Source: Tetragonia tetragonoides
Lineage: Eukaryota; Streptophyta; Magnoliopsida; Caryophyllales; Aizoaceae
Reading direction: 5' to 3'
DNA length: 64,000 nucleotides
NCBI GenBank assembly: GCA_038025085.1
Contig: CM076150.1
Coordinates: 1,738,501-1,802,500, forward strand
Shown here: positions 9,376-46,646 of the stretch, piece after piece
Position numbering within the stretch: position 1 is the first letter of the stretch
Layout: every line of letters starts with the position of its first letter
Made by a program: the position numbers and the translations under genes
The notes under the pieces: model-generated
Seen by the model: only the letters and a program-made list of their open reading frames with translations
Databases searched by the model: none
Told to the model about the DNA's origin: nothing

Positions 9376-10002
9376 AATAGAGTCTAGGATCTTATCTTTT
9401 TAGGAAGCAGAATCCCTGTATGATTCCGATGATGCTAGTGACCATGTTAAGGAGACGTTCCTTTCCATAAGAATTAGATTGCATGCAAATAATATATACC
9501 CGTCAATAATCTTTCACAAAAAAAAAAGAGTCCAATTTCATTCCATATGCAAGTCAATAGTATTTCTCTTTTTCTAAAATTAGGGAATTTCATCCCATAT
9601 GCAAGTGAAGAGTATTTATAATTCTAATAGTTTCGAAAGATCATTGATTAGAATATGCTATTTACATAAAATCGCGTCTTACCCAAAAGATCACCATGTT
9701 GAGGATTAGTGCTAGATTCTCTTCCCACATTTGTTTTAAAATAAAACTCTTTTTTTTATTATGTGGAAGTTCCCATTTGATTTCTATTTTCTTAAACGGG
9801 CCTTTTTAGGTCCATAATTAGTAGAAGTAGAGATACTGGTTCTAGGGAGTGGGAGAGAGACGAGTCCAGCAAGAGGTTAGTCCGTAAATTGTCGTTTGAA
9901 CCTTCACCACAAGCACAGTTCGTGGGCCCCGTTTGGCTCGATTACCTTCGTACACCGCCACTGTCACTTCAAGCCTCACCACCCGGTTCACCTAAGTCCG
10001 CC
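9376..10002 (+). mobile_element. Probable 5' untranslated region of the Tat-type element
   Basis: After the chromovirus LTR ends, no primer-binding site or second LTR start is seen. The gag frame is open upstream to about 9800 but without ATG, so translation probably starts at the ATG at 10003. A roughly 57-bp imperfect duplication (CCATATGCAAGT at about 9544 and 9597) lies here. The sequence is read as Tat 5' UTR separated from its 5' LTR by the chromovirus insertion; this is inference. Confidence 0.4.
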
Positions 10003-12168
10003 ATGTCTGAAGACGCCAAGAGAACCGCTGACCAAAAGATGGATGACCTTTTAGTCCAAATGGTCGTCATGAATGCTAGATTCACTGATATGGAAGCCCG
10101 TGTCGCCAAGTTGGATCCCCCTACTAAAGATGATGATGAGCCCAAGCCCGATGGGGAAAACGCCGAACCCTCCACTAAAGAGGTCCAAGAACTTCAAGCC
10201 AAGCTGAACAGGCTTGAATATGTCTTAGGCAAGAGTCGTGTCTTCAACGACATGATCATCAATTTTGAAGGCTATGCTCCCCACATCAAGGGAAAATTGC
10301 CCACTAAGTTCTCCATGCCTGAAGTTCCCACATTCAAAGGAACCGACGATCCACAAGATCACATTAGGGCCTTTACTACTGCATTGGGCCTTAGAGGCAT
10401 TGAACAAGGGCTGTATGTTCACCTCTTTCTCCAAACCTTGGATCCTGTTGTCAGGGCCTGGTTCTTCAAATTGCCCACCCAAAAGTTGGAAAAATGGGAA
10501 GACCTATCCACACTATTCCTCCAGAGATATGCTGACAATGTCTTGCCACCCATGACATTAAGGGAGTTGGACATCACCAAGCAAGGTGACAAGGAAGGGT
10601 TCACTAGTTTCGTGAGAAGATGGAGGACTAAGGTAGCCGAAATGATTGATCGTCCATCTGAAAGGGATCAAATCAGAATGCTAGTCCAAAATTTGGCATC
10701 TGAGTACCGTGAATACATGAAGTTTCAACCCATAACCACCTACGCTCAATTAACTGAAGTGGGTATGGCCATTGAAACTGACCGACTCCAAAGGGGGAAG
10801 AACAAGGTCACTTACAATAACAACACAAGTGGATATAAAGATAAGAAATACACTAATACCAATCATGCCTCCACAAGTAGAGGAAATGAAGTGAACGCCA
10901 TAGTTGATAGGCGTCCAAGAAGGTACACTCCCCTCGGAATGACTTATGTCAAAGCTCTAGACAAGTTGATCAAAGGAGACTATCTACATCCGATTGGGCC
11001 TACTCCCGATCCACCTGTAGTGAAAAGGTCACCATATTGGAACGAGTCCGCATTCTGCAAATACCATAGGGGGCGTGGGCACGACACTGAAAAGTGTTAC
11101 ACCCTCAAGGATAAAATCCAAGACTTGTTTGACAATGACACAATACCATTGCCTAAAGATGCACCACCACCCAGCAACAACAATAATTCCCTCGGGAATT
11201 CCTTTGCCATTGACATAGAAGAAGGGTTTGATCCATCCTATTTGATCACACCTATTGGACAGGCCATACCACCATACCCAAGCCCAAGATCCACGCTGGA
11301 TGTCTGCGGCCTTTGGGATAGCGATGAGGAAGATAATGGGTCACATACTGATCCAGAAGACGTGTTGACTTCTCAAGTCCATGACATAGCTAATGGCAAA
11401 GCCTGGTATGCTATTTCCGATGACGAGAAAGAAGAGGATGACAAAGCTCTAAACTATCTCACAAGATCAGGACGCCAATTCAGGCCCGAAAACATCTATA
11501 TGGATCCATCTCAAATCCAACCCGTAGAGCCTGTAGCTCTCCCCAATAGGGATTCGGCCCAAAGGAAAATGGTAAAAGAAGATGATGGGACCAATATCCT
11601 CAAGCAACTGCAAAGAACAAAAGCCGATATATCCATTTGGCAACTATTGGCCACTTCTATCACTCATAGAAGGGCCGTGCTAGAGGCCTTGAATGCAACT
11701 ACCATTTCTCTGAATGCTACCCCTGAAGAGGTAGTCAACCTCCTGGTCCAAGGAAAGTCATCCACGCCCATCACTTTTTCTGACAAAGACCTTCCACTTG
11801 AAGTCATTCACCACAACAAAGCACTTTATCTTACTGTAATCTGTCACCAAAGACAAGTCCCTATGACTTTAGTTGACAATGGCTCTGCTGTAAATGTATG
11901 CCCCTTGAGGACTGCTGAACACCTCAAAATAGACTGCAACAATCTCGCGCATTCCGCACAAGGGCTAAGGGCTTATGATAATTCCAAAAGGAATGTATTG
12001 GGTACTTTCTCCATGAATATCAATATTGGGCCCCTCGAGAAAATGGTCCAGTTCCATGTAATCGACATTCCGGCCACCTTCAACCTAATCTTAGGAAGGC
12101 CTTGGTTACACGGGCTAAATGCTGTAGCCTCAACCCTGCATCAAAAGGTAAAACTATCCTTGGCATGA
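10003..12168 (+). pseudogene. Tat/Ogre-type Ty3/gypsy gag and protease
   Basis: The frame is open from about 9800; the first ATG is 10003 (MSEDAKRTADQ). A coiled-coil-like acidic N-terminus is followed by a retrotransposon Gag core (PEVPTFKGTDDPQDHIRAF, LRELDITKQ, FVRRWRTKV) and a C/H-rich segment (CKYHRGRGHDTEKC). Near the end VDNGSAVNVCP (codons from 11872) is the aspartic-protease active site in the DNG form seen in Tat/Ogre elements, and LGRPWLHG closes the protease fold. The TGA at 12166-12168 interrupts a frame that continues in phase as pol, so gag-pro-pol was one polyprotein. The product would form the particle and process the polyprotein. Confidence 0.8.
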
Positions 12169-14928
12169 TCCACCGTGGAAGTCTGCACCGATACTATGGT
12201 AGCCCAGATTGAGAAAGCTCCAGTCCTAAAGATAGAGCATAATGAGAAAGACGAGGAGTTAAAGATAGCCCAGATTGAGGCATTCCAAGACTGCTTCACC
12301 ATGAGTGAAGACACACCCATACCTCCTAATGAGGGCCAATCCACTAAAGATTGGGCTAATGATATGGCACCCAACGACTTTGGGCTCTTGTTCGGCGAAG
12401 AACATCGTCAATACGACGAAACCGCTACCAAACTTCCCCTTACTGTGCTTTTTAATGAAGGTTTCGACCCGACCAAGCTGATCGCCCCAATCGGGCCCGA
12501 CCGCACCACCTGGAAGCACGAGACGAATTGGACTCCGGTCAAGGAAGCCAAGTACAAGTTCACCATCCGCAACGGTCCTACATGAGGTCCCATCTCTGAT
12601 TCTGAGTCTGATTCCGAGTCCGAGCCTGATTCTGAGTCTGTTATCTTAGAAGTGTCGTGTAGTCCACCCCAGTCTATTCCTGCTAAGGTCCTTAGCGATG
12701 ACCTCATTGATGTATTGTCCGCTTCTATTAATATTATGAACGTCAATTTTGCTTACTCGGATTGCCTCACCGCTAATAATTCAGAAAATATAACGGAATT
12801 GCCGAAAGAAGTTATTAAAGCACTAATCGAACATGAGCAAAAGACTTCAATAGTCGAAGAAACGGAGACAATAAACATTGCAACTAAAGATGAGCCTCGC
12901 CACGTGCAAATAGGCTTGTCTTTAACATCTAATGAACGCGAACAATTCGTAACACTCCTAAAGAATTATACGGATGTTTTCGCCTGGTCCTACAAGGACA
13001 TGCCAGGCATAGACCGCAAAATTGCTCAGCATACCATTCCGGTAAACCCCGACTGCAAACCAGTCAAACAAAAGCTAAGAAGAATGAAGTCAGAGTGGGC
13101 TCTTAAGATCAAGGAGGAAGTCTAAAAACATCTAGAGGCAGGCTTCATAAGAGTGGCCAATTACCCCGATTGGGTAGCCAACATTGTCCCAGTCCCAAAA
13201 AAGGACGGACGGGTCTGAATGTGTGTAGATTTTAGGGACTTAAACAAAGCAAGTCCAAAAGACGACTTTCCCCTACCTCATATAGACGTCTTGGTAGATA
13301 ACACCGTCGGACAGGCCCTTCTATCGTTTATGGACGGGTACGCAGGATATAACCAGGTCCTAATGGCCAAAGAGGACGAAGAGAAAACCACTTTCATCAC
13401 ACAGTGGGGCACTTATTGCTATACCGTAATGCCATTCGAGCTTAAGAATGCGGGAGCCACATACCAAAGAACCGCTACGACCTTACTCCACAATATGATG
13501 CATAAAGAGGCTGAAGTGTACGTAGATGATATGATCATAAAGTCCAAAGACAGAGAAGGGCATGTACCCCCACTTTAAATGTTCTTTGACAGGCTTAGGA
13601 AGTACAATATGAGGCTTAATCCCAAGAAGTGCGCATTCGGAGTTACATCCGGCAAACTTCTAGGATTTGTCATAAGCACCAGAGGAATAGAAATTGATCC
13701 ATCCAAGATCAAGGCCATAATAGACATGCCGCCTCCGAAAACGGAAAAAGAAATAAAAGGCTTTCTAGGAAGAATCCAATACATTAGCAGGTTCATCTCC
13801 AAGTTGACCATCACTTGTGAGCCCATATTCAAGAAACTAAAAAAAGAGGTAAAGACGGAATGGGACGAGCAATGGCAAAAGGCCTTTGACAAAATTAAGG
13901 CCTACTTATCTGAACCACCTGTTCTAGTACCGCCCATCCCAGGCATGCCTCTAATCCTCTACCTTACGGTCACTGAAACGTCAATGGGGGCCATGTTAGC
14001 CCAAGAAGTTGATAAGGAAGAGAAAGCTATATACTATGTGAGCAAGAAATTTCTTGAATATGAAACCCACTATTCATCCCTAGAAAAGACATGCGTAGCT
14101 TTGGTAGCAACTACCAAAAAGTTACGACATTACATGCTCCAACACACGATCCACATAAGATCAAGAGAAAATCCTTTGAAATACATATTCGAAAAGCCCA
14201 TACTAAATGGTAGAATAGCAAGGTGGACCGTTCTCCTCTCAGAGTTCGACCTTAAATTTGAACATCAAAAAGCCATAAAAGGGCATGCCATTTCAGAATA
14301 CCTGGCCGACCAAGCCATAAATGAACCAGATCACAAGGATGAATGTCACTTCCCAGACGAAGGGGTTATGACCTTAGACACCGAAACTTGGCAACTATAC
14401 TTCGACGGAGCATCCAACCAAAAGAGTTTTGGAGTAGGAATACTGATAGTATCCCCTGAAGATGCACATACACCTATTTCAGTCAAACGGGACCATGAGG
14501 CTACAAATAATGGCGCCGAATATGAAACTTGCATAATAGGACTGCAATCCGCCATAAGCCTTGGCATTAAGACACTCCGAGTCTATGGTGACTCGTCACT
14601 CATAATTAACCAAATTTCCAAAGTATGGAAGGTTAAAAGTGAATCTCTGGCATTCTACCAGGAATACTTAGACAAGATCATAGTGTATTTCAATCAAATA
14701 CACTTCACATACCTTCCACGAGAAGATAATCAATTTGCAGAAGCCTTGGCTGTGTTAGCAAGCATGATCAACATACCTGAAACCATCCGGATGATGCCCA
14801 TTTGCATACAAAGGAGATCCGAACCTTCATATTGCGACACCCTGGAAGTGTTCCACGATGAAGAAGATGAATGGTACACCGATATAAAAAATCTACTTGT
14901 TTACCAGCTCTACCCTCCTGATTCTTAG
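12169..14928 (+). pseudogene. Tat/Ogre-type reverse transcriptase with two RNase H domains (decayed)
   Basis: The same reading frame continues from gag-pro but is cut by stops at 12583, 13123, 13216, 13576 and 14926. RT motifs are clear: FRDLNKASPKDDFPLPHID, FMDGYAGYNQ and the catalytic YVDD (about 13519-13530). The first RNase H is degenerate (YLTVTETSMGAMLAQ lacks the usual aspartate). A second, archaeal-type RNase H follows from about 14395, with FDGA, NNGAEYE and YGDSSLI giving the catalytic acids and AEALAVLAS at its end. This dual arrangement is a hallmark of the Tat/Athila branch. Several stops fit C-to-T decay, e.g. the TGA in KKDGRV-stop-MCVDF. Confidence 0.85.
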
Positions 14929-14929
14929 C

Positions 14930-16117
14930 CGAAGAGCCCAGAAAGCACTCAGAAGGCTCGCGGCCCAATTCTTAGAAGTACAGGGTGAAATATAAAAGAA
15001 AAGCCCAAATGGAGTCAACCTCCGCTGGCTAGGTACCGAAACGGCCCATAAGGTCTTAAGAGAGGTACATGCAAGAGTATGTGGACCGCACATGAACGGT
15101 ATGATGCTATCTAGAAAGATAATAAGGCTTGGGTATTATTGGACAACGATGGAGAAGGACTGTTGTGAGTTTGTCAAAAGATGCGTACAATGCCAGACCC
15201 ATGCAAATCTAGAACATCTACCACCAAGCCCATTATATACCTTCACCTCACCTTGGCCTTTCTCAACTTAGGGAATCGACATCATCGGTAAAATAACCCC
15301 AACAGGAAAAGGGGGCCACGAATATATCCTGGTCGCAATCGACTACTTTACCAAATGGGTTGAGGCGCAATCATATGCGAAGCTCAAAGCAAAGCATGTG
15401 GTTAAGTTCATTAAGAATAACATAATAGCTAGATATGGAGTTCCCCAAGAGATCATCAGTGATAATGGGTCACACTTCATGAAAGAAGTGATTGAGCTTT
15501 TAACCCAGTTTAAGATCCAGCATCGAAAGTCATCTTTCTACAGACCGCAAACAAACGGTGCAGTAGAGGCAGCTAACTAGAACATCAAGAAGATCATTGA
15601 AAGAATGTCGGAAAATTATCATGACTGGCCAAACAAGCTGCCATTCGCACTTTAGGGTTATAGGACATCAGTTCGCGCATCAACAGGAGCAACGACATAC
15701 TCCCTGGTTTATGGAATGGAAGTCGTATTGCAAATCGAACTAGAGTTCCCATCTCCAAGGATCGTTTTAGAAAGTCAAATCCCAGAGGTAGATTGGGTCC
15801 AAGCCCGCTATGACCAATTAGTCCTGCTAGATGAGAAAAGGTTACAAGCTTTGCACAATGTAAGAGTCTATCAAAAAAGACTAACTAGGCACTTTAACCA
15901 AAAGCTCAAAATGAGGGACCTTAAGGTTGGAGACTTAGTACTTAAAGAAGTAAGGGTCAATGTCACTGACCCAAGAGGCAAGTTTCGACCCAACTGGTCA
16001 GGCCCGTTTATCATCACAAAGATCTTAACAGGTGGCGCTGCAAGATTGGCAGATTTAGACGGAATCGAATTTAGTCAATGGATAAACATGGATCAATTAA
16101 AGAGGTTCTATGCTTAG
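14930..16117 (+). pseudogene. Tat/Ogre-type integrase (decayed)
   Basis: The frame shifts by one base relative to RT/RNase H near 14928. The integrase zinc finger is visible (EVHARVCGPH then CVQC), followed by the catalytic core: GIDIIG for the first Asp, SDNGSHF for the second, and PQTNGAVEAAN for the Glu region. The C-terminal part (LKVGDLVLKEV, GKFRPNWSGPF) is the usual post-core segment. Stops lie near 14993, 15268, 15578 and 15653. The real end is TAG at 16115-16117. No chromodomain is seen, which fits Tat. Confidence 0.8.
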
Positions 16118-16290: not shown

Positions 16291-16561
16291 CAATTGGGCC
16301 CGGCCCCTTCAGCAAATTCGCATTCAAAAGTTGTTAAAATTTGTGCACATAATAAACACAAGGTTGCAATATTAAAAAAAAGGCATGTCTCCATAAATAA
16401 TAATAAAGTCCATTACAAGACTTGGCAGCAATTCCTAAATAATAAAAACAAATTAACTGAATCTAAAAAAAAAGAAGGGGCACATCACTCTTATTGAATT
16501 TAAAGCAATTAAAAGGCAATCCTAAGCTAGACATGTTCCAAAAAGAGTATTTCCTAATAGA

Positions 16562-18115
16562 CTACTCCGTAGCCTCGGTAGTAGGGACAACATCCTCAAT
16601 GGGTTCATCAACCTTTGGGCCTTCCACTTCGCGTTCCTTGGGAGCCCATCTCTCTCGGACCACGGGCTCTTCTTCTTTTTCAACCTCCATTAGAGGATCA
16701 CTTGTAGAGGCCTCATGATCATTGGCCCGAATTTGGGGCTTCTCCTCCGGCTTGGTAGTGATCTTGGCTAAAGCTTTCTTGGCCTTTGGGTTAAGAACAC
16801 TTTTCACATGCTTGACTCCCTTTTGTTTACCCTTCCTTTTAGGATCATTGGGGTTAGAAAGCCTTATGCTAGCCTTGACCGATTGGGCCTTAAGATCATC
16901 TTGTGCGGATTTTCTGCATGCACGACGACCTTCCACAGTCTTACAATCTATCCAAGCTTCGTAAGCTGAAGATATGGCCGTTGGGGCCTTGATATGAGGA
17001 ATAGTCCACTTAGGGCGACGATCCCATGCACACTCCCATGATCTTACCATACTAATAGTCAAAACCCGGGTTGCAAGTCCAACACTATCCTTCTGTGGGA
17101 TAATCTGGCATTTCCCATATTGCCGCATGATACGGCTAGGAAAAATGTAAGTCAAATTTTGAAGACCAAGGATTTGATAATATCCCGCCTCCTTGCTACA
17201 TCCAATCGCAGATTTTAAGTCCCACCACTTGACAATCCATCTTAGCAAAGGGCAAGCTTTAAGATATCCACGCCATTCATCAATGGTGGATTCATAATAA
17301 AGCCTTCGGCGGGCAGGAAACTGCTTTGGTTGGTATTTGAGCGCATTAGCCGGCCTCTCAATGAAGCACATATGCTCCAAAAGCCAAATCTACAAACACA
17401 AACAAACACAAATAATAATAAAGTTACGTATCCATTAAAGATTCAAACTTTACAAAAAAAAATCCAAAGTACTTATTCAAGCACTCACTTGAAGGAGAAC
17501 AGGACTTCCCGTCCATCCACCATGCGATGATTCTTGTTTCTTGCGGTCCAAGCACATTAGGGTTTCACCAAGAACAAGAGACATAGGGGTAAAATCGTTT
17601 TGAATTTGTTCAACAATTCTAAGCATACAAGTTTTACCATTATTACCTCCACCAACAAAGAGGTACCTATGTAAGAGACATAAGATAAAAGCACGCCTAT
17701 AATATGTTTCATTATGATCATCCCTTACCTTGGGGAAAAAGATGTCAATCACACCATTAAGGTCTAGCTCACTAGTTCTAGCCACAGAAGAGGCTTGTGT
17801 TGGGGATAAACCAAGATACCTTTTATAATAGCCTTCAAGATTGGCACCGAGCCATGGAGTTGCAGGAGCTTGATCATGAGGGAACCCAATTATGGCAGCA
17901 AATTATCCAGGAAGAGGACACAGTTCGTTATACCCGAATCTAAAAACATGAAGCTTGTCATCCCAAAATTCAACCGCAGCCTCAAGAAGGTTCCACACAA
18001 CCTGGACTTGCTTCAGATGGAAGAAAGCATTCAAGTGAAAGGGCACAAGTCTCATCCTCTCTTCATGGGTCATAGATTTCAATCACTTATCGAACTTAAC
18101 CTCAAAAGTTGCCAT
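16562..18115 (-). pseudogene. Gene A1: antisense PMD/DUF7745-like protein in the Tat element
   Basis: Two exons on the minus strand: 18115-17489 and 17389-16562, with donor CAA|GTGAGT and acceptor TTTGTAG|ATT, phase 0. The product would be 484 aa. Exon 1 holds VVWNLLEAAVEFWDDKLHVF, ELCPLPG and RRAFILCLLHRYLFVGG; exon 2 has IFPSRIMRQYG, a WW pair near LLRWIVKWW, and a Lys-rich then acidic C-terminus. This resembles the plant-mobile-domain/DUF7745 proteins found in plant genomes and retrotransposons. Two in-frame stops (TGA 18083-18085, TAA 17903-17905) break it; the splice sites are intact. It is antisense to gag-pol and sits between pol and the 3' LTR. Function is unknown. Confidence 0.7.
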
Positions 18116-18213
18116 GGCTGAATTCTAAATTAATTGGAGGTTTCTCTCTCTAAAAAGCTCTCTATTTCTATGGCATTATAAAGGTGATGTCCCAAAATCG
18201 GACTAACCCAAGG

Positions 18214-18221
18214 CTTATATG
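18214..18221 (-). promoter_or_regulatory. TATA box of antisense gene A1
   Basis: CATATAAG on the minus strand, about 100 nt upstream of the A1 ATG (18115). About 99 bp further upstream lies GGGCCCTGGCTGCC, which also occurs upstream of the LTR TATA box. Confidence 0.5.
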
Positions 18222-18269
18222 GGGCTCGCACGAAAAAAGACGAAATTAAGGCAACCCGTCGAAAAATAA

Positions 18270-18490
18270 GCTTCAGCGGCCCATAGGGCAGCCGCCAAAG
18301 GCTTGGCGGCCACGATATGGCAGCCAGGGCCCAGCGGCCCAACCGCCGAGCTTCAGCGGCCAGCCGCCTAGTCTCGGCGGCTCAGCCGCTGAGTCTGGCG
18401 GCCCCACTTTTGACCCCCGCTCTTTCGCGTCAGCCGCTGAGCATTCCTTTGGTCGCCGAGCCGCTTTTTCGAGACAACACTCTTCTACCC
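18270..18490 (-). promoter_or_regulatory. GC-rich palindrome-dense block upstream of A1
   Basis: Dense GCGGCTGAGCCGC-like palindromes in otherwise AT-rich DNA. GGGCCCTGGCTGCC (minus strand, plus coordinates 18319-18332) is identical to LTR positions 23206-23219, and the next 20 bp are similar (CGTGGCCGCCAAGCC versus GTGTGGCCGTCGAGCC). Read as a promoter module related to the LTR promoter. Confidence 0.5.
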
Positions 18491-18499
18491 GGTTTTGGA

Positions 18500-18875
18500 C
18501 ACTTTCCTTAACCGTTCCGGACTCCAATTTGGCTTAGTTTCCTATCTCTTCTATTATTACTATTTTTCTTTAATTTTCTTAATTATTTATGGGAACTCCA
18601 CAATTTCTTTTTTGGATGATTATCATCTTTTATTTTATTATACTTATTAATTTTATTTCATCTTTTGCACCCCTTTCTTTTTTCATTTTTTTTTAGGGGG
18701 GATAGGGTATACCCAATTTTAACTTTTTGGCTGTACCATTTTTTGCTACGTGGCTATTACTTGCGCTTTTTGCTTGACTACTTGTGCATTTGCATTAGCC
18801 TAATTATATGCAAGGACCAATAAAACAGAAATATGTTACAAAAGCAAAGTCCGAATGTTTGTTCAACACAAATGT
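18500..18875. other. Spacer between antisense genes B1 and A1
   Basis: AT-rich, T-rich sequence without coding signal; it would contain the 3' end of B1. Nothing else is recognised. Confidence 0.5.
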
Positions 18876-21649
18876 TCAAGAATGTATTTCATACAAATGC
18901 ATTATCAAAAAATCATCACCCGCATCAGCATCAGTGCGGAGCACCTCAAAATGATCCTCCAACCTCCGTGGCTCATCACCAAAGATCGACGCCGCCAGCT
19001 GGCCCGGGTCAAAGGAAGAATGATGGGCAGGCTCCCGATATGAGCACCCCTCTCCAGCATAACTCGAATCATACCCCCAAGAAGAACGAGGAGGCATCGT
19101 AGGCATCATAGGAGCAGGGACAGGAGGCTGGTAGTAAAGACCACCATAAGGAGCATACCCCGCATACCCGGGATAAGAAGGATACATCGGCATATGCATA
19201 GGAGTTGGATCCGCAAACTGAGTCATCCTACTCCCACCAGGACGGTCCGTCCGATGTACGGGTTCCCTCTCTCTCCTAGGACTCTCCCTCCGAGGGCTCC
19301 TCTCGATCACGAGAAGAACTACGCTCAGTCGAGCTCACAACCTCATCATCCGACATAACCACCTGTCGTGACCGACGAGGAAGGGGTCGACGGTACACAA
19401 CCTGCAACCCACCAAACATATAAGATACATTTCTCAAAGCATACAACTTTGAAAATGCAAATCAAGTTTACCTTATCCAAGTCAGCTCTGGAGCAAGTAC
19501 CCTTCGAGAGAGCTCGAGAAATCCAGAACTTCATGGCATGCATCATCTTAAAGACCTTCACGGTCTGCTCACGGTCAAGCTGCACAAAAAAAAAGTCAAT
19601 ACAAGCATGAAAGCGGTAAAAATCACATGCAACAGGTAAAATAACGAATTTACCCCTGGATGCCCAACTGGAAGAGGAAGGCCCTGGATGTCCTCATCAA
19701 GGTCCTCCGTCATCGGAACCTCCCCCCAACACTCCTTCCCGCCATAATCCCGACCTCAGACCCGCATATCCGGGACATCCACATCGATGGCGTCGACCCG
19801 AGGCTCCTATGAAGCAAAGAAGGTTAGCACTCAACAAAACAAGAAAGGCATAGAATAACAAATATAAAATTCTTACCTTCAAACCCACAAATGAAGGCAT
19901 GAGGCGATCACGACGGAATTGCTCGTAGTGCCCCGCAAGGTCCTCCGCAGGCTCCCTCAACTACCGCATAGCATCCGAGCCCACCATGGCCTCCGCAACC
20001 TGCTCACGAGACAAGCACCTCACCAAGAACATGGTCGAGGGAGGATCCAAGGGAATCCTCGGGCCCGCCACGTCAGGATAAACCTGACGGAAGATCCGCT
20101 CTCCCAAATACCACTCAAAAGAGAACGGACCCACAATCAGGATCCTCCGGCGGTCTATCGCCCTAGAGGAAAGGATAGCATCCGAGGCCAACCCATGGTA
20201 CTTCGCCCATGGGAAGTAGTCAATCTACACAAACATGTAATATAAGATATTTCCACACCAAGAAGTACAATCCATGCAACAAAAAAATCAAAATTGCGTT
20301 ACCTTGTGCCAGTCTAGGCGCAGGAGGGCCTCCCTATACTGCTGAAGAGTCTGGAAGGGCGCAGGACCCCTATGACGCCACGCCCTGCAAACCGAAAAAT
20401 CCAACTCCCAGCCCGTAGGCGCCATGTCTGGGAAATGCTCAAAGAACCAAGGTTACGTCGAAACATGAAGCTAAGCACCATACACTTGAAATCATGCAAA
20501 TCATCAAATGAATACAAAAGCAAAACGCACCTGCAAGGCCTTCCAAAAACCGCACAAGCTCACGGGAGGAAGAGTTGTCTGCTTGTATCCCTCATCACTC
20601 ACGCGGCAAGCAAACCGCATGCACCTCAAGAGGTTGGCGTAGCCCGGCAACCCCCAGTTGTACTCTCTCACCCTCTCCCAATCCAACAAGCTAGGGAGGT
20701 AAATAGCATGGATACGCTCTCCCTTGTCACCAAAGATGGTGGTGGCAAGGAGATAGGCGATAAACTTCCTCGCCTTCTGTTCCACCGAGGTAGTCCTCTT
20801 GTACCTCACATCAGTCAAAGCGGCATAGAGCTCGTTGTAGGGACGATAATGGTGACCCCAGGTATTCCCTCAAGGGCCGAACAACTCCACCATCTCAGTC
20901 TTACGTTTCCAGATGGAAACGTCATACACAATGGGCGTACCCACGCAAGGCACTCCGGTCAATATAGAAAACTCCGATGGAGTGATCATCATCTCCCCAT
21001 TAGGAAAGTGGAACGTGTTGGTAGTATCCCAAAAACGCTCCAAAGACAAGCGGACAATGTATCTCTTGACTCGCTCAACCGAGTCCGCCGCTTTCAAAAG
21101 GGGCCCAAACCCCGCACCCAAAACCGCACTCTGCACCTCTTTGGGCAAAGTCTTAAAGACCTTCACCGAATAACCATAGTTACCATGGGGCTTCAAATTC
21201 CCATCGGGTTCCTATGATCAATTCGCAACCTCTTAGGTTCACATTTCAATCAAATGTTCAATCCTAAGCATGTTTCTAAGTTCGTTCAAGCCGCGCAAGA
21301 TCACATGCGCTACAAACTTGACAATTGCATACAATTTCTACTCAAGGCAAAGCATATAAACTAAACTTCAACGCATACAACTATGAATTCAAAGTTTGAG
21401 GCTTACCACAAACTTAGAAGCATGGGAACTCAAGTGAGTCTCTGGTCGAAAGAGCAACTCCGACCGATCCCAAACGATGTCGGGCATCCTATCCGACCGT
21501 GTGTACCTATCTTGAGGAAAAGCCCCATTGGGCTTCCTCTTGGAAGGCTTGACATGGGAAGGAAAAGCTTTGGTGAAGATATCAATTTCTTCAACCTCTT
21601 CCCGAACCTCGGCCCTGCTACTTCTCTTCTTCACCAATTTGGGAGCCAT
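18876..21649 (-). pseudogene. Gene B1: seven-exon antisense plant mobile domain (PMD) protein
   Basis: Exons (minus): 21649-21407, 21211-20531, 20452-20303, 20224-19877, 19806-19654, 19579-19472, 19401-18876. Exons 1-6 have lengths divisible by three, so all introns are phase 0. Starts MAPKLVKKRS. Exon 2 carries the PMD signature TPSEFSILTGVPCVGTPIVYD; exon 4 has GPFSFEWYLGERIFRQV; exon 7 is Arg/Ser-rich, then Pro/Tyr/Gly-rich. The family (aminotransferase-like PMD, as in MAIN/MAIL1) is found in host genes and transposons. Breaks: TGA at 20870-20872, TAG at 19961-19963, a TGA in exon 5, a frameshift in exon 7, and AA instead of AG at the exon 3 acceptor. It is antisense to gag-pol. Confidence 0.75.
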
Positions 21650-22665: not shown

Positions 22666-22781
22666 CATAGGCGGTCAGGAGTCTATCTTTTCTTCTTTCT
22701 AACATAAAGCATTTTCAAAAAAAAAAAACATTGCAGGCATTTTTAGCAAATACTTTGACCTTCGTTTTTACAAGCTCGGCC

Positions 22782-22795
22782 AAAGTGGGGGCTTC
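22782..22795 (+). promoter_or_regulatory. Polypurine tract of the Tat element
   Basis: AAAGTGGGGGCTTC directly before the LTR start TGTAGACACCC. This is the plus-strand primer site in LTR retrotransposons. Confidence 0.75.
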
Positions 22796-23104
22796 TGTAG
22801 ACACCCTAATTGGTTCTCATCCCCTGACACCGCAACGCCCGATGATGATGGTAATGGATTAACATGGACGTAAGTAGAAAAGGACATTGCTCGGAAATCT
22901 AGACCAAATTATTTGAAACCTCAGTCTTTGGATAGCCCTTGTTATAAGGATTCCAACGCCTTTGACCTTGCCTCAATCAGGTTCCCGGATCAAGAGATAT
23001 CGCGTCTCGAAGATTCGGGTCAAAACCGCTCAATCCCGACCCCCCGGGTCAGCCCAAGGGCAATTTCATAATTTACAGAGTACAAAAAGTCAAAAACCCT
23101 AGTC

Positions 23105-23260
23105 ACGCGCGCGCCGTCAGGTCCAGCGGCTGACGCGACCTGTCCGGCGGCCAGCGCGTGACAGCGGGGGCCATTAGGCCAGCCGCTGGCCCCAGCGGCG
23201 GCCGCGGGCCCTGGCTGCCCTCCGTGTGGCCGTCGAGCCAGTTTTTTGGCTGCACCGAGT
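23105..23260 (+). promoter_or_regulatory. GC-rich block of the LTR promoter
   Basis: Contains CCAGCGGCTGACGCG, CCAGCCGCTGGCC and GGGCCCTGGCTGCC (23206-23219), the last identical to the block upstream of antisense gene A1. Confidence 0.5.
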
Positions 23261-23308
23261 TTTGGCGCCGGGCTTCTTGCCCTAAGCCCCTAAATCTGTC
23301 CCCTAACT

Positions 23309-23318
23309 CTATAAATAC
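23309..23318 (+). promoter_or_regulatory. TATA box of the Tat LTR
   Basis: CTATAAATAC, 90 bp downstream of the shared 14-bp GC-rich word, followed by CTCCTCTTCACCC. Confidence 0.6.
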
Positions 23319-24429
23319 TCCTCTTCACCCTCTTTTGCATGGGGTCAGTCAGTTCATAATTTTGAGAGCATTGAGAGCATATATTTCCCCAAATCAAAGA
23401 GAATTCAGAAATCTGAAGATCCAAGCAAGCATTACACCTAGCCTAGCACCCAAGATCAAAGAGCAATTCCAATTCTACTAGTCCCGTTCGTATAGAACGT
23501 CCAGGCTAACCATCCTGAGGGCCTAATTCTTTATTAAATCTCTTATTTGCTGCTTATTATTCATGTTTTATTTAGCCTTTGATTATGGTTGAATTAAATT
23601 TGCATGTTTTGGGTTTTGTACATAATTATGCATGATTAGTTAATATAAAGTTTGCGTCTTTTTATTAGTTTATGCAAGTTTGCATCTTTTCCTAGTTTTT
23701 GCATGCATATAGTAGCCCCCTAGGTTTATTTTAGCATAAAGTTAATGTCTTTGCATTATTATTATTCTTTTGAAGATACTAACGGTTTTTGTTAATGTGC
23801 ATATGCAATACATGGCGCGTTTAGCAAAGTTAGTAGGTTGGAGCGTTAATTTAATACTTTATATCATGTTTATGGTTGTTAATAGAATGCATGTAAATCG
23901 GATATAAATCGTGCAAAGTGATAACATAGGTAATTTGGTTCTTCTTAACCCGCCTAGTTAATTTAGGATCATTGGACGACCGGATTTGTACGGAACCATA
24001 TAGCATAAATAAATACTTGACATGGATAAGCTTGGTAGAGGCCGTTAATACGGGCGATTTAGATGAGATTCATTTTGTTTATTTCGTACCTACATCCCCG
24101 AACTCAATATTTAGTCCCCATGGGCATGAGTCAATTCCCAATAGGAATTAGGGTGCACTTTTGATGGTTTTCAATTGTTTCCTTAAAAATTGGTGGCGGC
24201 TTCTTATTTGCAAATTATTGTTCTTTATAATTAATTTGAATCACATGTGGCATATATTTAAGAACCATTAATTCCAACTAAAAAATCGAAAACGCGCCGG
24301 AAAGGCGAGGGTTCTTACATACTCGTTCAATGATAAATGAAATACAATATCTCTCTCTTCTTTCTCTACAATTCAGCTTACTCTCTAGCTAAGCTAAGTA
24401 GTTCATATCTCGATCATCTTCATGAATCA

Positions 24430-38589: not shown

Positions 38590-41320
38590 TTGGAGTTAAG
38601 TTGCATTTTAATATTAATTTTGGATAACATTATTGAGGACCTCCTCTTCCGTACCAGGTTCCCTTTATCTTGGAGAACTCCTCATTACTACATGGACCGG
38701 GCGAACTTGTACCAGGATTCATTTATGTGTATGGACTGGCGACCTGCGGAGGCTTGGGACCGTAGCGTGCTTCTGCTCGATTGCGTCTGGTATGCTTCTG
38801 ACTTTTTTTGGTTTTGTTTATTTTGTTCTGAAAAGTTGAATTGTAAGTGTTTCAACACATGAACAAATTGGGATTATACTGAATTGATGGTCAGCTGTGT
38901 AGAATATTTGTGTAGAATTATCTGGGTTGGAATTGTAGTATATAGGGTATTGAAATTTTTTGACTATTTGTTGGCTAGGGAGTTGGCATGTATTTACAGG
39001 CTCATGGGTTCACTTCACACTGGTCCATTATGCTAGATTCTTTTTCTGAGGGGACAAGGGAGTTGATTCGGGCTTCGGGTTTTGAGTCATTTTTGTCTGT
39101 TATCCCATCTTACCATTCGGGTGATACTCGAGTGATTTCCCGGGGGTTGCTAGAAGAGGTTATGGGATACCACGAACACTTTTCATACCCCTGCGGGAGA
39201 GATGTTCCCTACCCCGTATTAGTTTGTTGTACTGACGGGTTTGTCCTTTAGAGGGCGTCCTTTGTTGTACAACGCGAGCTACCATTTGCTGGTAGACAGA
39301 GTGCTTGAGCTGTATGGGCATGTTGCTCTTTTCTTTGATAGGGACTGAGTCTCCTTGTCGAAGTTGTGGGAGGCTTTGACTGAGCAAGGGGTCACTGAGT
39401 CTCAGAGGGCCCGTATCTTTTTAGCTTATCTGTTAGGGGTGACTATTTTTGCCCAGAAGAAGAGTGTATGCCAGATCGGGTTTCTTCAATGTCTGAGGAT
39501 TTGACCGTGGTACATGAGTACAATTTTAGTGCTCCTGCTTATGCTTCTTTGGTGAGATGGTGTCGACAGGCTTGTAGGCTTAGGTCGACGAGTCGGAGGA
39601 CGTCTATTTCTGGTCGTTGGAGGATACTGGAGGTAGGCATGTCTTTTTGTTCTATGTACACATGCATGTTCCGTAGTTGACTCAAATCTGATTATTTCCA
39701 CTTGTATGGCAGTTGTGGTTTTTTGAGTATTTCCCGTCTTTCAGTCCTCATCGTCCTAGTTTGAGAATGTTCCCACTAGGTGCACGGTGGGGTGGTAGAG
39801 ATAGTCATCCGTTTTCCTCTTTGGAGGATTTCCGGGTTTCATTTGAGAGCCGAGCTGCGTTGGAGGTATGTTGTTCTCGACTTGTTTTTTCGGTTCATTT
39901 GGTGTGAATGAACTCTGACCTTGCTTTCTGTAGGTGATGTGGACCACTTTTGACAATGTCCATGGGTCCTGTCTCACATCACTACCGAGTCCTACAGGGT
40001 ACCTTGCGAATAGTGTTTGAGGGACCGTTTGGTTTTGAGTGGTACTTAGGAGACCATCTGACTCGGCTGATATCTCCGCACTTTGGTAGCCATTTGGTTC
40101 CGGAGGATCCTCTCATGACCATGTTTCACTTGCGTTGTCTAAGCGTAGCTGACTTGGCCGTCGTTGTTAGGGGTGCTACAGCCATGTAGTTTGTATTACC
40201 AGAGGCTGAGGATTTAGACCGTACAACGGTATACCTCGCCTACATCTTGGATCGCTTGATGTCGGACATTACTTTTAAGGTAAAATCTTGATTCATGTTT
40301 TGTAGTTATATATGCAGCATGCTGACTTTTATGTCTTCGCAAGAGGATCGTGCGGCTCCCAGTGGGAATAGGAGATCTCGTCTTAGAGTCCCTGACAGTC
40401 AGCCCCCGAGCATAAGCTTACTAAGTATTGAGGTGAGGTATATTGGAGAGAGTGGGGGTCGCATAACGGAGGAGTTTCCCCTACATGGTGCTGATGGAGA
40501 GGCAGTAGAGAGTTTACCGTTGCCTTATGATTGTGTGTGGGTAAGCTTTTATCCTCTCTTGTTTGTTGACTTGTACTGTTTTCAAATGCTGACTCTGTCT
40601 CTTGTCTTTTTTGTAGCTGAACCGGGAACAAACTTCTCAAGTCTTCATGCTCATTCACTTGTTGAAAAAGGGCTATAGCCGGGTGATGAGCTGAGGAAAG
40701 AGTTCTCGATCCGGGACTGCAAGTGTAAGTACTTTTTGTCTTCTTGTTTAAGCAAGTGAGGTGCTTAGTTTAACATTCTTGTTTTGATCTTGTGTAGATG
40801 TCGCAGTCTTCATCTTCAGTGGGACCATGACACTCGTCGGAGAGAGCTTCTTCGACGAGTAGACCATCTTTTGCTCGGTCTCGTACTGTTGTGGTGACTA
40901 GGTCTTCTCCTGCTGAGGTGTCTGGGCCGTCTAGGCCACACCTTCATTTGCCGGAGATGTTTCCTGCAACAGGTTTTCAGCCTTCTTTGAGTAGTAGGCC
41001 CGTCTTGACTCCTATGAGTGGAGGTTGGGCAGATGCTCATGGATGGGGTGTACCTCAAGCTGGGCCTTTGCATCAAAATATGGCTACTTACTTTGCTAGC
41101 CAGGCTGCGGAGAACATCTTCGGACTGGGGCCTTCGACAGGTACCTCGTACATGCGCCTTTGTTTGATGGGCGAGATATGAGGCCTAATTACAGCAGGCC
41201 GATATACAGCTCATTCAGCATCCAGGGCTCTTTCTACTATTGGGGGGGGGGGGCTTTAGTCACGGGCCCGCTGCTGAGGATGAAGTTGATAGCAATGGTG
41301 TTGATAGCCCAAGTGACGTC
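38590..41320 (+). pseudogene. Gene B2: second copy of the seven-exon PMD gene, broken
   Basis: Same architecture as B1. Exon 1 ends near 38788; others are 39000-39632, 39713-39865, 39934-40279, about 40332-40540, 40617-40724 and from 40798. Exon 6 is 108 nt in both copies; exon 3 is 153 versus 150 nt. Matching segments include LTGLSFRGRPLLYNA (PMD core), VHEYNFSAPAYASLVRW, GPFGFEWYLGDH, EEFPLHGADGEAVESLPLPY and LNREQTSQVF. Splice sites are mostly intact. Frameshifts in exons 2 and 4 and stops (a TAG in the PMD core, a TGA in exon 6) break it. Exon 7 is Ser/Pro-rich and contains a G12 run (41242-41253). Transcribed toward A2. Confidence 0.7.
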
Positions 41321-41919
41321 GTTTGAGTAGTGTAGACTTGACTTGTAGACTTTTGACCTTTGAAATTTTGAACACATGTTTATGCATTTTATGACTATGT
41401 ATGCTATTATGACTCAATTATGCCCGTCTGATCTCTAAATATGCAACATGTTATGCAGTAAAGAGAAGGGCAAAATTTAGGAAATAAATAAAGAATAAGG
41501 TAAAAATTGCAAAAGAAAAAAACAAAAATTACACATATTATACCGCCTAAAAAAATAATAAAAAGAAAAGAAAGAAAACCGAAAAAGTTAAAAATAAGAG
41601 AGTCTCGGGTCTGTAACCGCGTTGTTTTTATGAATCGGACTCGGAACCATGTAGAATGGACCGGTTGGACGGACGAGGGAAGGACAAAAAATGGGTTGGA
41701 CCGAGGTTAGGGACGCTAGCGGCCCTGGTCACAACAGCTGGCGGCTCTGGCCCTCTGCTGAGGGCTGCTGAGGGCTGCCGACGGCTCTGGCTTTGGGCTG
41801 TTTGCGAATTTTTGAATCTTTTTATGGCCCAGTTTTTTGACTATAAATAGGATTGACGGGATGCCCAATGTCGTATCTCTTTTCAGATTTTTACTCCCAA
41901 ATTTCACAAATTTTTTATC
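41321..41919 (+). promoter_or_regulatory. B2-A2 spacer with A2 promoter
   Basis: After AT-rich sequence, a GC-rich block (41701-41800, GGCGGCTCTGGCCCTCTGC and CTGAGGGCTG repeats) precedes GGCCCAGTTTTTTGACTATAAATAGG. The TATA box is TATAAATA (41841-41848), about 75 bp before the A2 ATG. CCAGTTTTTTG is also found in the Tat LTR (23236-23246) between its GC block and TATA box. Confidence 0.5.
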
Positions 41920-42069
41920 ATGGCGAAGTCCTTTGAAAATTTGTTCGATGCTTGGTGCAAAAATCTGACTGTGGAAGATAAACTAGAATTGGCTCCCTAT
42001 TATATTTCCACCCTATTGTCTTTGAAACTGACTAAAATTCTGTGGCCTCTTCTACGATCTGCTCTGAAC

Positions 42070-42267
42070 CAGAGGCGGAACTTGCAAAAAAATACTAGGA
42101 GGGCCAAGGCTTGAACCCCCAACATCTTGTTTATGAGAAACATACTTCACCAATATGCTAAAGCTTTTTTTGTGTATATTAAGTGCAAGAACATCTATAT
42201 ATTATGGAATATTTTTTTTGGCTGGGGGGGCCACATCCCCTTCCGCCCTAATGAAGTTTCGCCACTG
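42070..42267. mobile_element. hAT-type MITE (198 bp) with 8-bp target duplication
   Basis: Ends CAGAGGCGGAACTT and AAGTTTCGCCACTG (inverted repeat of about 14 bp with three mismatches). Flanked by CTCTGAAC at 42062-42069 and 42268-42275. 8-bp duplications and CAGxGGCG ends fit hAT. It interrupts gene A2. Confidence 0.85.
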
Positions 42268-42890
42268 CTCTGAACTATTGGGATCTAGAATTGCATGTCT
42301 TCCACTTGGTAACTCTGAATTATGCCCTTTAATAGAAGAATTTGCTGCTATTACTAACATGTTGATGTTCTTCCCCCAGTTTTGCCTTATTTGAGGGATG
42401 GTTTTAGCAATAAATACAGAAAGTCTCTTGGCTTGTCATCTGCGGAAGCCAAAAGTATGATCCTTGGTGTCTATGTGGACTTGGTCCAAATCTGTGTGAA
42501 ATTTGCTTCCTCTTCTAGGCAGGATGTAATATTCAGGCATTGTCGTCGACGGGCCTTTGTACTCTGTTTATTAAACCGCCTATTGTTTGTCAATGCAGAA
42601 TCATATGATTTGGGTAGGGCCTCGTTGTTGCGAGTAGTAGATCAAATGGTTGAAGGACATTCTCCTTTACATCTGGTTGTAGGAGAAACCATTCTAGGGC
42701 TTGACAGGTTGAAGATATTGCCTAGGGAAGCATTTTCTAGCAGTCCCATGTTGCTTCAGATTTGGCTATGTGAGCACTTGAGGTTGATAGAGTCACCAGA
42801 AAAGATGATAGCTCATGGTCCTAATTCTTGGAGGAGAAGAACTTATACCGCTGCTAGTTTTCTGGTCAGGAAAAGGTTGTATAGTGAGAA

Positions 42891-45214
42891 ATTTGTTGAT
42901 ACCATTACTAAGGTCTGGCACCAACCTGTTGAAGGTCAGGCCATGAACACAATATGGCTCAAGCTGCGGAAATGCCATGTTATTCCTATTAAGGCTTTGT
43001 CTACAAAGGACTTTGGTAGTGTGGATACGAGAATTGATCTTGCTAGATCTGAATTAGTAGCTGTGCAGAATCTTATGATTGACAATCTTACTGATCCTGA
43101 CTTGGTGGCTAAGGAAAGATTTAGCTTGGCAGAGTTGGAAAAATGGTCTAATGTACAAGAGAAGATTTACAAGCAAAAATCCAAGGCTCATTGGATTAGT
43201 GTGGGAGATAGTAACTTGAAGTACTTCTTTGCTGTAATGACTGACAGATTTAACAAAAGCACCTTAACCTCCCTAGTTACTCGGTCTGGTAGGAGATTGG
43301 TGAAGAGTGAAGAGATTAAAGAAGAGGTGCTGGGTTTCTATATCGTGGTCTGCTTGGGTCCTCTGCTACTCAACTTTTTGGCATTGACATCACTGTTATG
43401 AGGAGAGGAGCCCAGCTTAACCTTGAACAACAACAACTCTTATGTGCGACTGTAACAGATATGAAAATCAAAGATGTTGTCTTCTCGATTGGAGATGACA
43501 AAGCACCTGGTATTGACGGGTTCAATGCATGTTTCTTCAAAAAGATGTGGCGTGTCATTAGCTCTGAGATATGTTGTGCTATCCATGAATTCTTCAATTC
43601 TGGTAACATGTTTCCTGTTATAAACAATATTGTGATCACTATTGTGCCAAAAGTTGCTCAACCTACATCTGTAGAAGAATTTAGGCCTATTGCATGTTGT
43701 ACCACATGGTATAAGATCATCTCTAAGGTGATTACGCATAGGCTTCAACATGTTATTGACTGTGTTGTTAGTAGTAGTCAATCTACTTTTGTGCCAGGCA
43801 GGCTTATTTCTGATAACATTTAATTGAGTCACAAGCTTGTGAAAGGGTATGCTAGAAAAAATATTTCCCCTAGATGTATGATGAAAGTTGACTTGCAGAA
43901 AGCTTATGACTCTGTTGAGTGGGGTTTTATTGAGGATGCCATGAGGAAATTGGGCTTCCCTGCTACTATTTTGCGTTGGATCATGAAATGTATCACCATT
44001 GTTTCTTATACTATCAAGCTGAATGGTGAGTACACTAAGTCTTTTCCAGCTAGAAGAGGCTTACGACAAGGAGATCCTATGTCCCCATATTTGTTTACAA
44101 TATTAATGGAGTATCTACACGAGTGCTTGTATACTCTTCATAGTAACAACCTCTTCCGATACCATCCTCGTTGTAAGAGATTGGGGATAACACATCTTTG
44201 TTTTGCGGATGATCTTCTTTTATTTGCAAGGGGTGATGTGAGTTCAGTTAGACAACTCCATGAGAAATTCACTCAATTCTCTCTTACATCTGGGTTAAAG
44301 GCTAATCTAGACAAGAGTCAAGTGTTTTTGGTGGGGTGAGCCCTACGGAGAGGGTCCAGATTTTGGATGTTTTAGGGTATACTATGGGGAGCTCCCAGTA
44401 AAATAATTTGGAGCCCCCCTTGCTAGCAAACGACTTCAGGTGACTCGATGCAAGATTCTTATTGAGAAGATGACATCTCAAATCAGAACTTGGGCTGCGA
44501 GATTTTTGTCTTATGCGGGGAGACTACAACTGATAAGATATGTTCTGTATGGCATCCAAGCTTACTGGAGCCAACTCTTCGTTCTCCCACAAAAGGTTTT
44601 GAAATTAGTTGAAGCTACTTGTAGGAGCTATCTTTGGTTCGGAGAAGCTCAGATTTCTAGGAGAGCTTTGGTGGCATGGGATAAAGTATGTCAGCTAAAG
44701 TCAGCGGGTGGTTGTAATTTGCTTAACTTAAAAATCTGGAACCAGGCTGCTATTTGCAAGCTCCTATGGGCTCTAAGTTTGAAACAAGATAAGTTATGGA
44801 TTCAGTGGGTTCATATATACTACGTGAATAGTCAGAATTTTTGGCGTATGAAATCTCCTTCTTAGGCTTCTTGGATGATAAAAAAAATCTTCCAGGCTCG
44901 AAAACATTTTGGCAAAATTGGAGATGGAGATTGGCCATCTATTGTTAGTAGAGGCAAGTATTCTGTTAAACAGGCTTATTTGAAGATTATGGGACAGATA
45001 GAGAAAGTTCAATGGAAGACTCTAATTTGCTCCAATGCTGAATCCCCGAAAGCAACGTTCATATTGTGGTTAGCCTTGTTGAATAGGCTTAGAACTAGAG
45101 ATATCTTGAATTTGTGGGGTGCCACTTCTGACACCGCTTGTGTGTTTTGTAATGGACTAGATGAGACTATGAGCCATATATTTTTTCTGTGTCCTTACAC
45201 TAGGGATGTTTGGC

Positions 45215-45246
<32 letters not shown>

Positions 45247-46046: not shown

Positions 46047-46646
46047 TGAGAAGACCCTTGCTGAATGGGACGCCTTTTTCAGTGTTAGACCTGCTATCCG
46101 TTGGTATGTACCTTGGTGGGGTTTGACTTCTTTGGTGCCTACTGTAAGAACATCCCATATACTAGAATAGTAAGTATGTATATGAGTACATTTTTCTTCC
46201 CTTCTAGGATCATGAGGCGATATATGGGTTGAAACAAGCCTCGTCAGGAGACTACAAGACAAACTGTCATGACTTTCACAACTGATTTTGCTCAGAGCTG
46301 GAGTGTATACTAGCGAGGCAGGGATCGTTGGACAGTGCAGTGATACCCCAATATTTTCTATAATTATTATATTGATTTATAAATGATTTATAAATAGTTT
46401 TAGAGATTAAATCGTTATTACATTCAAGGATTCAATTTATTCAATTAACGCCATAATAATATAATTATTATCATGAGACTTTCATAAATTGTATTTATCA
46501 AATTTGGGGAGTTTAATTAAAATATTTTATATATGAATAAGAATTATTCATATTGTTTTAATTAGTTTTAATTAGCAATTTAAATCAGAAAATTATTTAA
46601 TAATTTTCTAAACCTATTAGAAATTTACTTTGGTTGACTGAGGGCC

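What the first reader, a model, noticed from the sequence alone, without database searches (positions are those of the whole stretch)
16562..21649. Two intron-bearing PMD-type genes carried antisense inside a Tat/Ogre retrotransposon
Between pol and the 3' LTR the element carries genes B1 (seven exons) and A1 (two exons), both antisense to gag-pol. Seen directly: GT-AG introns, all phase 0 in B1, and PMD-like sequence. Antisense extra ORFs are known in Tat elements, and PMD proteins are known in transposons. Inference: because the genomic RNA is the opposite strand, its splice signals are invisible, so introns survive each retrotransposition cycle. The element would then be a vehicle for a spliceable two-gene cassette, possibly acting on host silencing as MAIN/MAIL1 relatives do.
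Basis: partly seen in the sequence, partly recalled or inferred. Interest (0 to 1): 0.82.

Follow-up and report, generated by a model that had tools for sequence, protein, structure and literature searches.

The report
Intron-bearing gene pair antisense in retrotransposon
A decayed plant retrotransposon carries, on the strand opposite to its own genes, a pair of related intron-containing genes, and a second diverged copy of the pair nearby keeps most of the introns in the same places, which suggests that facing backwards protects introns from being lost when the element copies itself through RNA.

Summary
The gene pair is real. Between pol and a PPT plus 3' LTR (22796-24319) of a Tat-clade Ty3/gypsy element lie B1 (7 exons; PMD, 75 bits, cut-off 34.9) and A1 (2 exons; remote PMD, 22 bits, below cut-off), both antisense, 7 of 7 introns GT-AG. 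'Ogre' is not supported. New: a second, diverged B-A pair at 38.6-46.3 kb, same order. Five of six B introns share site and phase with it; the sixth matches at its acceptor. A1's intron lies at the site of B intron 2; A2 lacks it. This supports long survival of introns in an antisense cassette, though no gag-pol or LTR was found beside the second pair. Sequences upstream of A1 and B1 share a GC-rich motif cluster with the LTR U3. PMD in Gypsy elements, antisense accessory ORFs and TE-encoded PMD as counter-silencing are in print; in ten searches I found no intron-bearing antisense pair. The window's genome could not be searched (tool busy 13 times).

The parts
9796..16117 (+). gag-pol of a Tat-clade Ty3/gypsy element, decayed (9 internal stops, one frameshift near 14900-14926)
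   Evidence: Pfam: gag 18.4 bits (below cut-off 24.1), RVT_1 49.9, RT_RNaseH 83.4, RVT_3 68.4, Integrase_H2C2 36.0, rve 50.2; stops
16562..18115 (-). gene A1, two exons (18115-17489, 17389-16562), intron 17488-17390; stops at 18085 and 17905
   Evidence: PMD 22.1 bits, below cut-off
18180..18520 (-). upstream region of A1: GC-rich motif cluster, TATA-like ATATAAG at 18220
18876..21649 (-). gene B1, seven exons (21649-21407, 21211-20531, 20427-20303, 20224-19877, 19806-19654, 19579-19472, 19401-18876); stops at 20872, 19963, 19758; frame breaks in exons 3 and 7
   Evidence: PMD 75 bits
21900..22200 (-). upstream region of B1: GC-rich motif cluster, 69% identical to that of A1 over 144 bp
22780..22795 (+). 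polypurine-like tract next to the 3' LTR
   Evidence: sequence; identified by eye
22796..24319 (+). 3' LTR, TGTAGACACCC...TTCTTACA, 1524 bp, TATAAA at 23310; termini read by eye, no second LTR to confirm them
23090..23310 (+). part of U3 with the motif cluster shared with the A1 and B1 upstream regions
38600..41330 (+). B2, diverged and decayed relative of B1; exons 2 to 7 recognisable (38979-39632, 39713-39865, 39934-40279, 40346-40540, 40617-40724, 40798-41330), exon 1 unclear
   Evidence: a 102-aa piece scores 36.4 bits to PMD
41620..41870 (+). upstream region of A2 with a weaker GC-rich cluster and TATAAA at 41842
41920..46337 (+). A2, relative of A1, no intron at the LLQ|IW site (42748), split by a LINE-type insertion (about 42.9-46.0 kb) and a small insertion (42070-42266), 3' end missing

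Best explanation
The stretch is the antisense accessory region of a decayed Tat-clade Ty3/gypsy retrotransposon whose 5' end is lost. It carries two tandem genes of PMD type in the order B then A, transcribed from the 3' LTR side towards pol, each probably from its own promoter. The genomic RNA runs the other way, so the introns of B and A appear in it as CT...AC and should not be spliced out; they pass through reverse transcription, while the antisense mRNAs are spliced and translated. The intron site shared by A and B suggests that the pair arose by duplication of one intron-bearing PMD gene that entered the element as genomic DNA, not as cDNA. The likely role is nuclear: the two PMD proteins, like the interacting host pair MAIN and MAIL1, would act on expression or silencing of the element, possibly through the GC-rich motif shared by the LTR U3 and both antisense upstream regions. 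Shown: the anatomy, the conserved intron sites in a second pair, the shared motif cluster. Inferred: expression, splicing, the nuclear role, the target sites, and that the second pair was also carried by a retroelement.
For: Genes lie between pol and PPT/3' LTR. B1 is PMD at 75 bits. 7 of 7 introns GT-AG and AT-rich. A second B-A pair in the same order; 5 of 6 B intron sites match at both borders in phase 0, the sixth at its acceptor. A1's intron and B intron 2 at the same LQ|xW site. Stop density of gag-pol (9 in about 2115 codons) and of B1 plus A1 (5 in 1077) alike, Fisher p 1.0. Third codon positions differ most between the two pairs. The A1 and B1 upstream regions resemble each other and U3 beyond 400 of 400 dinucleotide shuffles. 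No flanking terminal inverted repeats.
Against: No other copy of this element was seen: the genome search did not complete (13 calls). B2-A2 has no gag-pol or related LTR nearby. The 3' LTR has no partner in the window. B1 and A1 found no relative in the protein database, which does hold plant proteins. A2 lacks the intron, so protection is not complete. The GC motif was chosen after inspection, its plain count in U3 is not unusual (149 of 2000 shuffles), and antisense comparisons also score high (0, 1 and 1 of 400). No expression or splicing data.
Confidence: 0.65

Rival explanations
1. A1-B1 and A2-B2 are ordinary host PMD gene pairs with introns. The Tat element lies around one pair by chance, or captured it once, in this copy only.
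For: B2-A2 stands in the window without gag-pol or LTR. Host PMD-B and PMD-C genes exist in angiosperms (PMC5418596, passages). No other copy of the element could be inspected.
Against: B1 and A1 lie between pol and the PPT/3' LTR, where Tat accessory ORFs sit; they decayed at the same rate as gag-pol; their upstream regions resemble U3 of the same element.
Confidence: 0.12
2. The antisense transcripts matter as RNA, not as protein: they pair with the genomic RNA and feed siRNA control of the element.
For: The genes face pol tail to tail and the genomic RNA covers them; a dsRNA role for antisense accessory transcripts is proposed in PMC7264820 (parts 1 and 2 of 3 read).
Against: Exons open apart from decay stops, splice sites in register with the frame, and a third-position excess between two diverged pairs point to protein.
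Confidence: 0.12
3. A DNA transposon carrying PMD genes (MULE type) inserted between pol and the 3' LTR of this one copy.
For: PMD occurs as fusions with MULE transposases in several grasses and Amborella (PMC5418596, passages).
Against: No flanking terminal inverted repeats; no transposase domain in B1 or A1; upstream regions resemble the LTR U3.
Confidence: 0.05

Closest known systems
PMD extra ORFs of Ogre and other Gypsy elements (Neumann et al. 2019, PMC6317226; Ikeda et al. 2017, PMC5418596, clades PMD-A1 and PMD-A2; PMC9289625; passages seen of each)
   Same: A PMD protein encoded by a plant Ty3/gypsy element; PMD reported in 57% of Ogre elements and as the most frequent non-canonical Gypsy domain
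   Different: No intron or pair is described in the passages seen; the 2019 survey called unspliced ORFs of at least 250 codons. That Ogre's extra ORF lies 5' of gag in sense is recalled, not checked.
Retand antisense ORFs between pol and 3' LTR (Vicient 2025, PMC11963269, parts 1-3 of 5 read and a word search)
   Same: Antisense coding region between pol and 3' LTR of a Tat-clade element with RNase H between RH and INT; tandem repeats near the 3' LTR
   Different: Retand ORFs carry TRP28, not PMD; the paper's text has no occurrence of 'PMD' or 'intron'. LTR and pol-LTR region here are larger than its range.
Grande gene23 (described in PMC7264820, parts 1 and 2 of 3 read)
   Same: Antisense accessory gene after pol with its own promoter, nuclear protein
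   Different: No similarity tested; one gene; introns not mentioned in the parts read
MAIN/MAIL1 host PMD proteins (PMC7156037, PMC8616336, passages)
   Same: PMD domain; two PMD proteins that work together and affect TE silencing
   Different: Host genes; whether the pair here interacts or affects silencing is unknown
HTLV HBZ antisense gene (named in PMC11963269; that its mRNA is spliced is recalled)
   Same: Retroelement gene on the antisense strand at the 3' end
   Different: Unrelated protein; animal virus
VANC proteins of VANDAL transposons (PMC5735166 and PMC10398659, abstracts)
   Same: As a model only: an element-encoded protein acting on repeated motifs in the element's own noncoding DNA
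   Different: DNA transposon, unrelated protein; binding here is untested

Membership tests
Tat clade of Ty3/gypsy (Ogre/Retand group) | Second RNase H between RH and INT | tested here: met
   RT_RNaseH then RVT_3 in 13579-14928, then Integrase_H2C2 and rve; definition from PMC6317226
Ogre | Two ORFs with a spacer/intron between GAG-PROT and RT | tested here: not met
   One frame from 9796 to about 14926 broken by five stops, no spacer
Ogre | PBS for its tRNA type | not testable with these tools
   5' LTR and PBS not found
Ogre | PMD extra ORF (57% of elements) | tested here: met
   B1 PMD 75 bits; position and orientation in Ogre not checked
Retand | Antisense coding region between pol and 3' LTR | tested here: met
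   A1 and B1
Retand | TRP28 domain (PF04195) in the antisense ORF (97% of clusters) | tested here: not met
   No PF04195 in joined B1 and A1 at E 0.1 or in six pieces at E 10
Retand | LTR 315-1194 bp; pol-LTR region about 2.9-6.6 kb | tested here: not met
   LTR 1524 bp, region 16118-22795, 6678 bp; both just outside the range in PMC11963269
PMD, PF10536 | Score at or above Pfam cut-off 34.9 bits | tested here: met
   B1 75 bits, B2 piece 36.4
PMD, PF10536, gene A1 | Score at or above Pfam cut-off 34.9 bits | tested here: not met
   A1 22.1 bits; A2 piece no hit
DUF7745, PF24924 | Score at or above Pfam cut-off 26 bits | tested here: not met
   A1 13.3 bits whole, 14.3 for exon 1 alone
MAIN/MAIL1-like silencing factors | Mutual interaction, PP7L binding, effect on TE silencing | not testable with these tools
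   Needs experiments; described for the host proteins in PMC7156037 and PMC8616336 (passages)

The most novel reading that the evidence does not exclude
Tat-clade retrotransposons carry an old, heritable two-gene PMD cassette whose introns survive round after round of retrotransposition only because the cassette is antisense. The two proteins form a MAIN/MAIL1-like pair that acts on a GC-rich motif which the element keeps in its own LTR and in both antisense promoters: a retroelement-borne, sequence-specific counter-silencing system with spliced genes.
Probability: 0.2. Interest if true: 0.82.

Novelty: new variant of a known kind. Interest (0 to 1): 0.6.

Why it matters
Retroelements are expected to lose introns, since they pass through spliced RNA. 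An antisense cassette with intron sites kept across strongly diverged copies would show a simple way for a retroelement to carry spliced genes, and would explain why surveys that call unspliced ORFs see such genes only in pieces. It also makes the open question of where the plant silencing proteins MAIN and MAIL1 came from more testable: intron sites in element-borne and host PMD genes can be compared directly.

Tried and rejected
Whole-genome search for further copies: asked 13 times in the same form, never answered. Protein searches with B1 and A1: none at E 1e-3 among 7997 and 3702 scored word-sharing candidates; a search with the RT-RH ORF gave 1550 hits, with many of the 120 listed named as angiosperm, so plant proteins are held. 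Viral contigs with one B1 and one A1 piece: no relative. PDB sequences with B1: none at E 1. Structure of B1 exon 2 alone: mean pLDDT 35.8, discarded, no fold search made. A first B1 model had exon 3 in the wrong frame for what follows and was replaced. The B2 exon 2 and 3 starts were corrected. In one search the A2 start was one base off, so piece A2a (41 codons) and piece A2d (2 codons) are meaningless; they are left out of the A codon-position test but are inside the 258-codon A total. For B the codon-position test used 4 of 8 pieces (268 of 423 codons), leaving out the four least similar (e2 5' part, e3, e4a, e5; at least two of these were misaligned by the program). Considered and rejected: MULE insertion, Ogre membership, DUF7745 membership. 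Literature: ten answered searches. Steinbauerova et al. 2011, the paper most likely to mention introns in such ORFs, was not seen.
Full report
WHAT IS THERE. The window is plant nuclear DNA with LINE and LTR elements. A Ty3/gypsy gag-pol runs on the + strand from 9796 to 16117. Pfam on its pieces finds RT, RNase H, a second RNase H (RVT_3) and integrase in that order above cut-off, and gag below cut-off (18.4 bits, cut-off 24.1). A second RNase H between RH and INT is the mark of the angiosperm Tat subclades Ogre and Retand (PMC6317226, passages). A polypurine-like tract at 22780-22795 is followed by a 1524-bp LTR, TGTAGACACCC...TTCTTACA, 22796-24319, with TATAAA at 23310; its ends were read by eye. 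No partner LTR was found in 1-9900 or in the rest of the window: the 5' end is lost.

THE GENE PAIR. In the 6678 bp between pol and the 3' LTR two genes lie on the - strand. B1 starts at 21649 and has seven exons; A1 starts at 18115, ends at 16562 and has two. All seven introns are GT-AG, 70-195 bp long, 61-74% AT against 46% and 55% in the exons. Joined B1 scores 75 bits to PMD (PF10536, cut-off 34.9); A1 scores 22.1, below the cut-off, and 13.3 to DUF7745, cut-off 26. The exon frames are open beyond chance: three stops in 593 modelled B1 codons against 62 in 1174 codons of the other two frames.

THIS COPY IS DEAD. B1 has stops at 20872, 19963 and 19758, a frame break in exon 3 and one in exon 7; A1 has stops at 18085 and 17905. 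gag-pol has nine internal stops and a frameshift. Stop density is alike, 9 in about 2115 codons and 5 in 1077, Fisher p 1.0, as expected if all parts were intact at insertion and decayed together.

A SECOND PAIR. tblastn with A1 and B1 against the window found a diverged relative of each on the + strand, B2 at about 38.6-41.3 kb and A2 from 41920, in the same order and direction, B then A. A 102-aa B2 piece scores 36.4 bits to PMD; an A2 piece and a second B2 piece gave no Pfam family. The tblastn matches have 29-42% identity. Aligned piece by piece, B has 36% over 423 codons (41-44% in the four better pieces) and A 34% over 258 codons, totals that include some misaligned pieces. A2 is split by a LINE-type insertion (RT match 27.8 bits, just under the cut-off 29.6) and by a small insertion with a 9-bp duplication, and its 3' end is missing. 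No gag-pol piece and no related LTR lies near it, so that B2-A2 was also carried by a retroelement is an inference.

INTRON CONSERVATION. Five of six B1 introns (2 to 6) have both borders at the same site and in phase 0 in B2, allowing one codon of length difference before intron 4; exon 6 is 36 codons in both. Intron 1 matches at its acceptor, seven codons before a shared xHG; its donor in B2 is unclear, since exon 1 of B2 is decayed. For intron 4 of B2 two acceptor AGs are possible and I chose the one in frame. The intron of A1 (LLQ|IW) lies at the site of B intron 2 (LQ|TW in B1, LE|LW in B2), so A and B probably descend from one intron-bearing gene. A2 reads through this site without an intron (SPMLLQIWLCEH, near 42748). 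The pattern is what intron survival in an antisense gene predicts, with one clean loss. In exon 3 of B1 the AG leads into a frame that soon closes; B2 has 18 residues ahead of the aligned part of this exon, of which B1 keeps at most two, so I read it as a deletion.

PAST SELECTION. In 268 codons of the four better B pieces, 48%, 40% and 66% of first, second and third positions differ; in 215 A codons 53%, 41% and 67%. The excess at third positions suggests selection on the proteins before decay. The alignments were made on protein, which favours this result to some degree, and the four least similar B pieces and two meaningless A pieces were left out.

SHARED UPSTREAM SEQUENCE. Of the 300-bp windows taken every 100 bp, those with six or more GCGGC/GCCGC lie upstream of A1, upstream of B1 and in U3 of the LTR, nowhere else in the 64 kb. 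Of 21 copies of four 7-mers of this type, 18 lie in these three regions, 863 bp in all; the motif was chosen after inspection. The A1 and B1 upstream regions are 69% identical over 144 bp; A1-upstream and U3 align over 107 columns with an exact 14-mer, each in its own sense direction. Local scores of the three sense/sense pairs exceed all 400 dinucleotide shuffles. The antisense comparisons are also high (0, 1 and 1 of 400 shuffles reach them), so orientation is not a firm point. A2-upstream is weaker: 2 of 400 with A1, 10 of 400 with B1, 13 of 400 with U3. Against the idea, the plain GCGGC/GCCGC count in U3 is not unusual (149 of 2000 shuffles reach it), though the 7-mer count is (0 of 2000). 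No terminal inverted repeats flank the pair.

HOW IT PROBABLY WORKS. The genomic RNA is the + strand. In it the seven introns read CT...AC and offer no splice sites of their own, so they are copied into cDNA and kept. The antisense mRNAs, made from promoters on the 3' side, are spliced. Two PMD-type proteins made side by side recall MAIN and MAIL1, which interact and act in TE silencing (PMC7156037, PMC8616336, passages). TE-encoded PMD as counter-silencing is already proposed in print (PMC8616336, and for MULE elements PMC5418596; passages). KPSKRKP in B1 and KRKGKQKG in A1 look like nuclear signals by eye; no tool was run. The shared motif would be a natural target, as with VANC proteins and their repeated targets (PMC5735166, abstract), but this is a guess to test.

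WHAT IS KNOWN. PMD is reported in 57% of Ogre elements (PMC6317226), as the most frequent non-canonical domain in Gypsy consensus elements (PMC9289625), and as two clades encoded only by Gypsy elements (PMC5418596) (passages of each). Antisense ORFs between pol and 3' LTR mark Retand, but with TRP28 (PMC11963269, parts 1-3 of 5 read). Grande gene23 is antisense, nuclear and has its own promoter (PMC7264820, parts 1 and 2 of 3 read). The 2019 survey used unspliced ORFs of at least 250 codons, so it was not built to see introns. In ten answered searches I found no report of intron-bearing antisense PMD genes in a retroelement; the library lacks most subscription papers, and Steinbauerova et al. 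2011 was not seen.

VERDICT. Observation partly confirmed, interpretation partly supported. The domain and the place of the genes are known kinds; paired genes with introns kept across diverged copies are a new variant, as far as my searches reach. The genome-wide test remains open because the genome search did not answer in 13 tries.

Noticed in passing
3159-7652, - strand: LINE with endonuclease and reverse transcriptase in 3159-5210 (Exo_endo_phos 37.0 bits, RVT_1 115.7); the ORF at 5400-7652 beside it was not tested.
   Followed up: partly
about 7660-9384, - strand: Sequence that ends at 9384 with the reverse complement of TGTAACACCCCGAATTTCC, which by recall is how some other Gypsy LTRs begin; it may be what removed the 5' end of the Tat element.
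   Followed up: no
22416-22616: Three tandem copies of a 67-bp unit between the B1 upstream region and the PPT; such arrays are common near the 3' LTR of Retand elements (PMC11963269).
   Followed up: no
18643-18743 (- strand) and 41502-41598 (+): The spacers between B and A in the two pairs share an A-rich stretch with a CCTAAAAAAA core (67% over 103 bp, E 1e-6 without masking); low complexity may explain it.
   Followed up: partly
42061-42275: Small insertion in A2 flanked by GCTCTGAAC on both sides, with ends that look like short inverted repeats: MITE-like, seen by eye.
   Followed up: no
54497-58064: Tandem repeats of a unit of about 1.4 kb, 87-88% alike.
   Followed up: no
58291-58953: Stretch that matches its own reverse complement at 71%, a long imperfect palindrome.
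   Followed up: no
35730-36377, - strand: Exon with a 2Fe-2S domain (Fer2_3, 117 bits), by recall a succinate dehydrogenase iron-sulfur subunit, so B2-A2 lies close to host genes.
   Followed up: no
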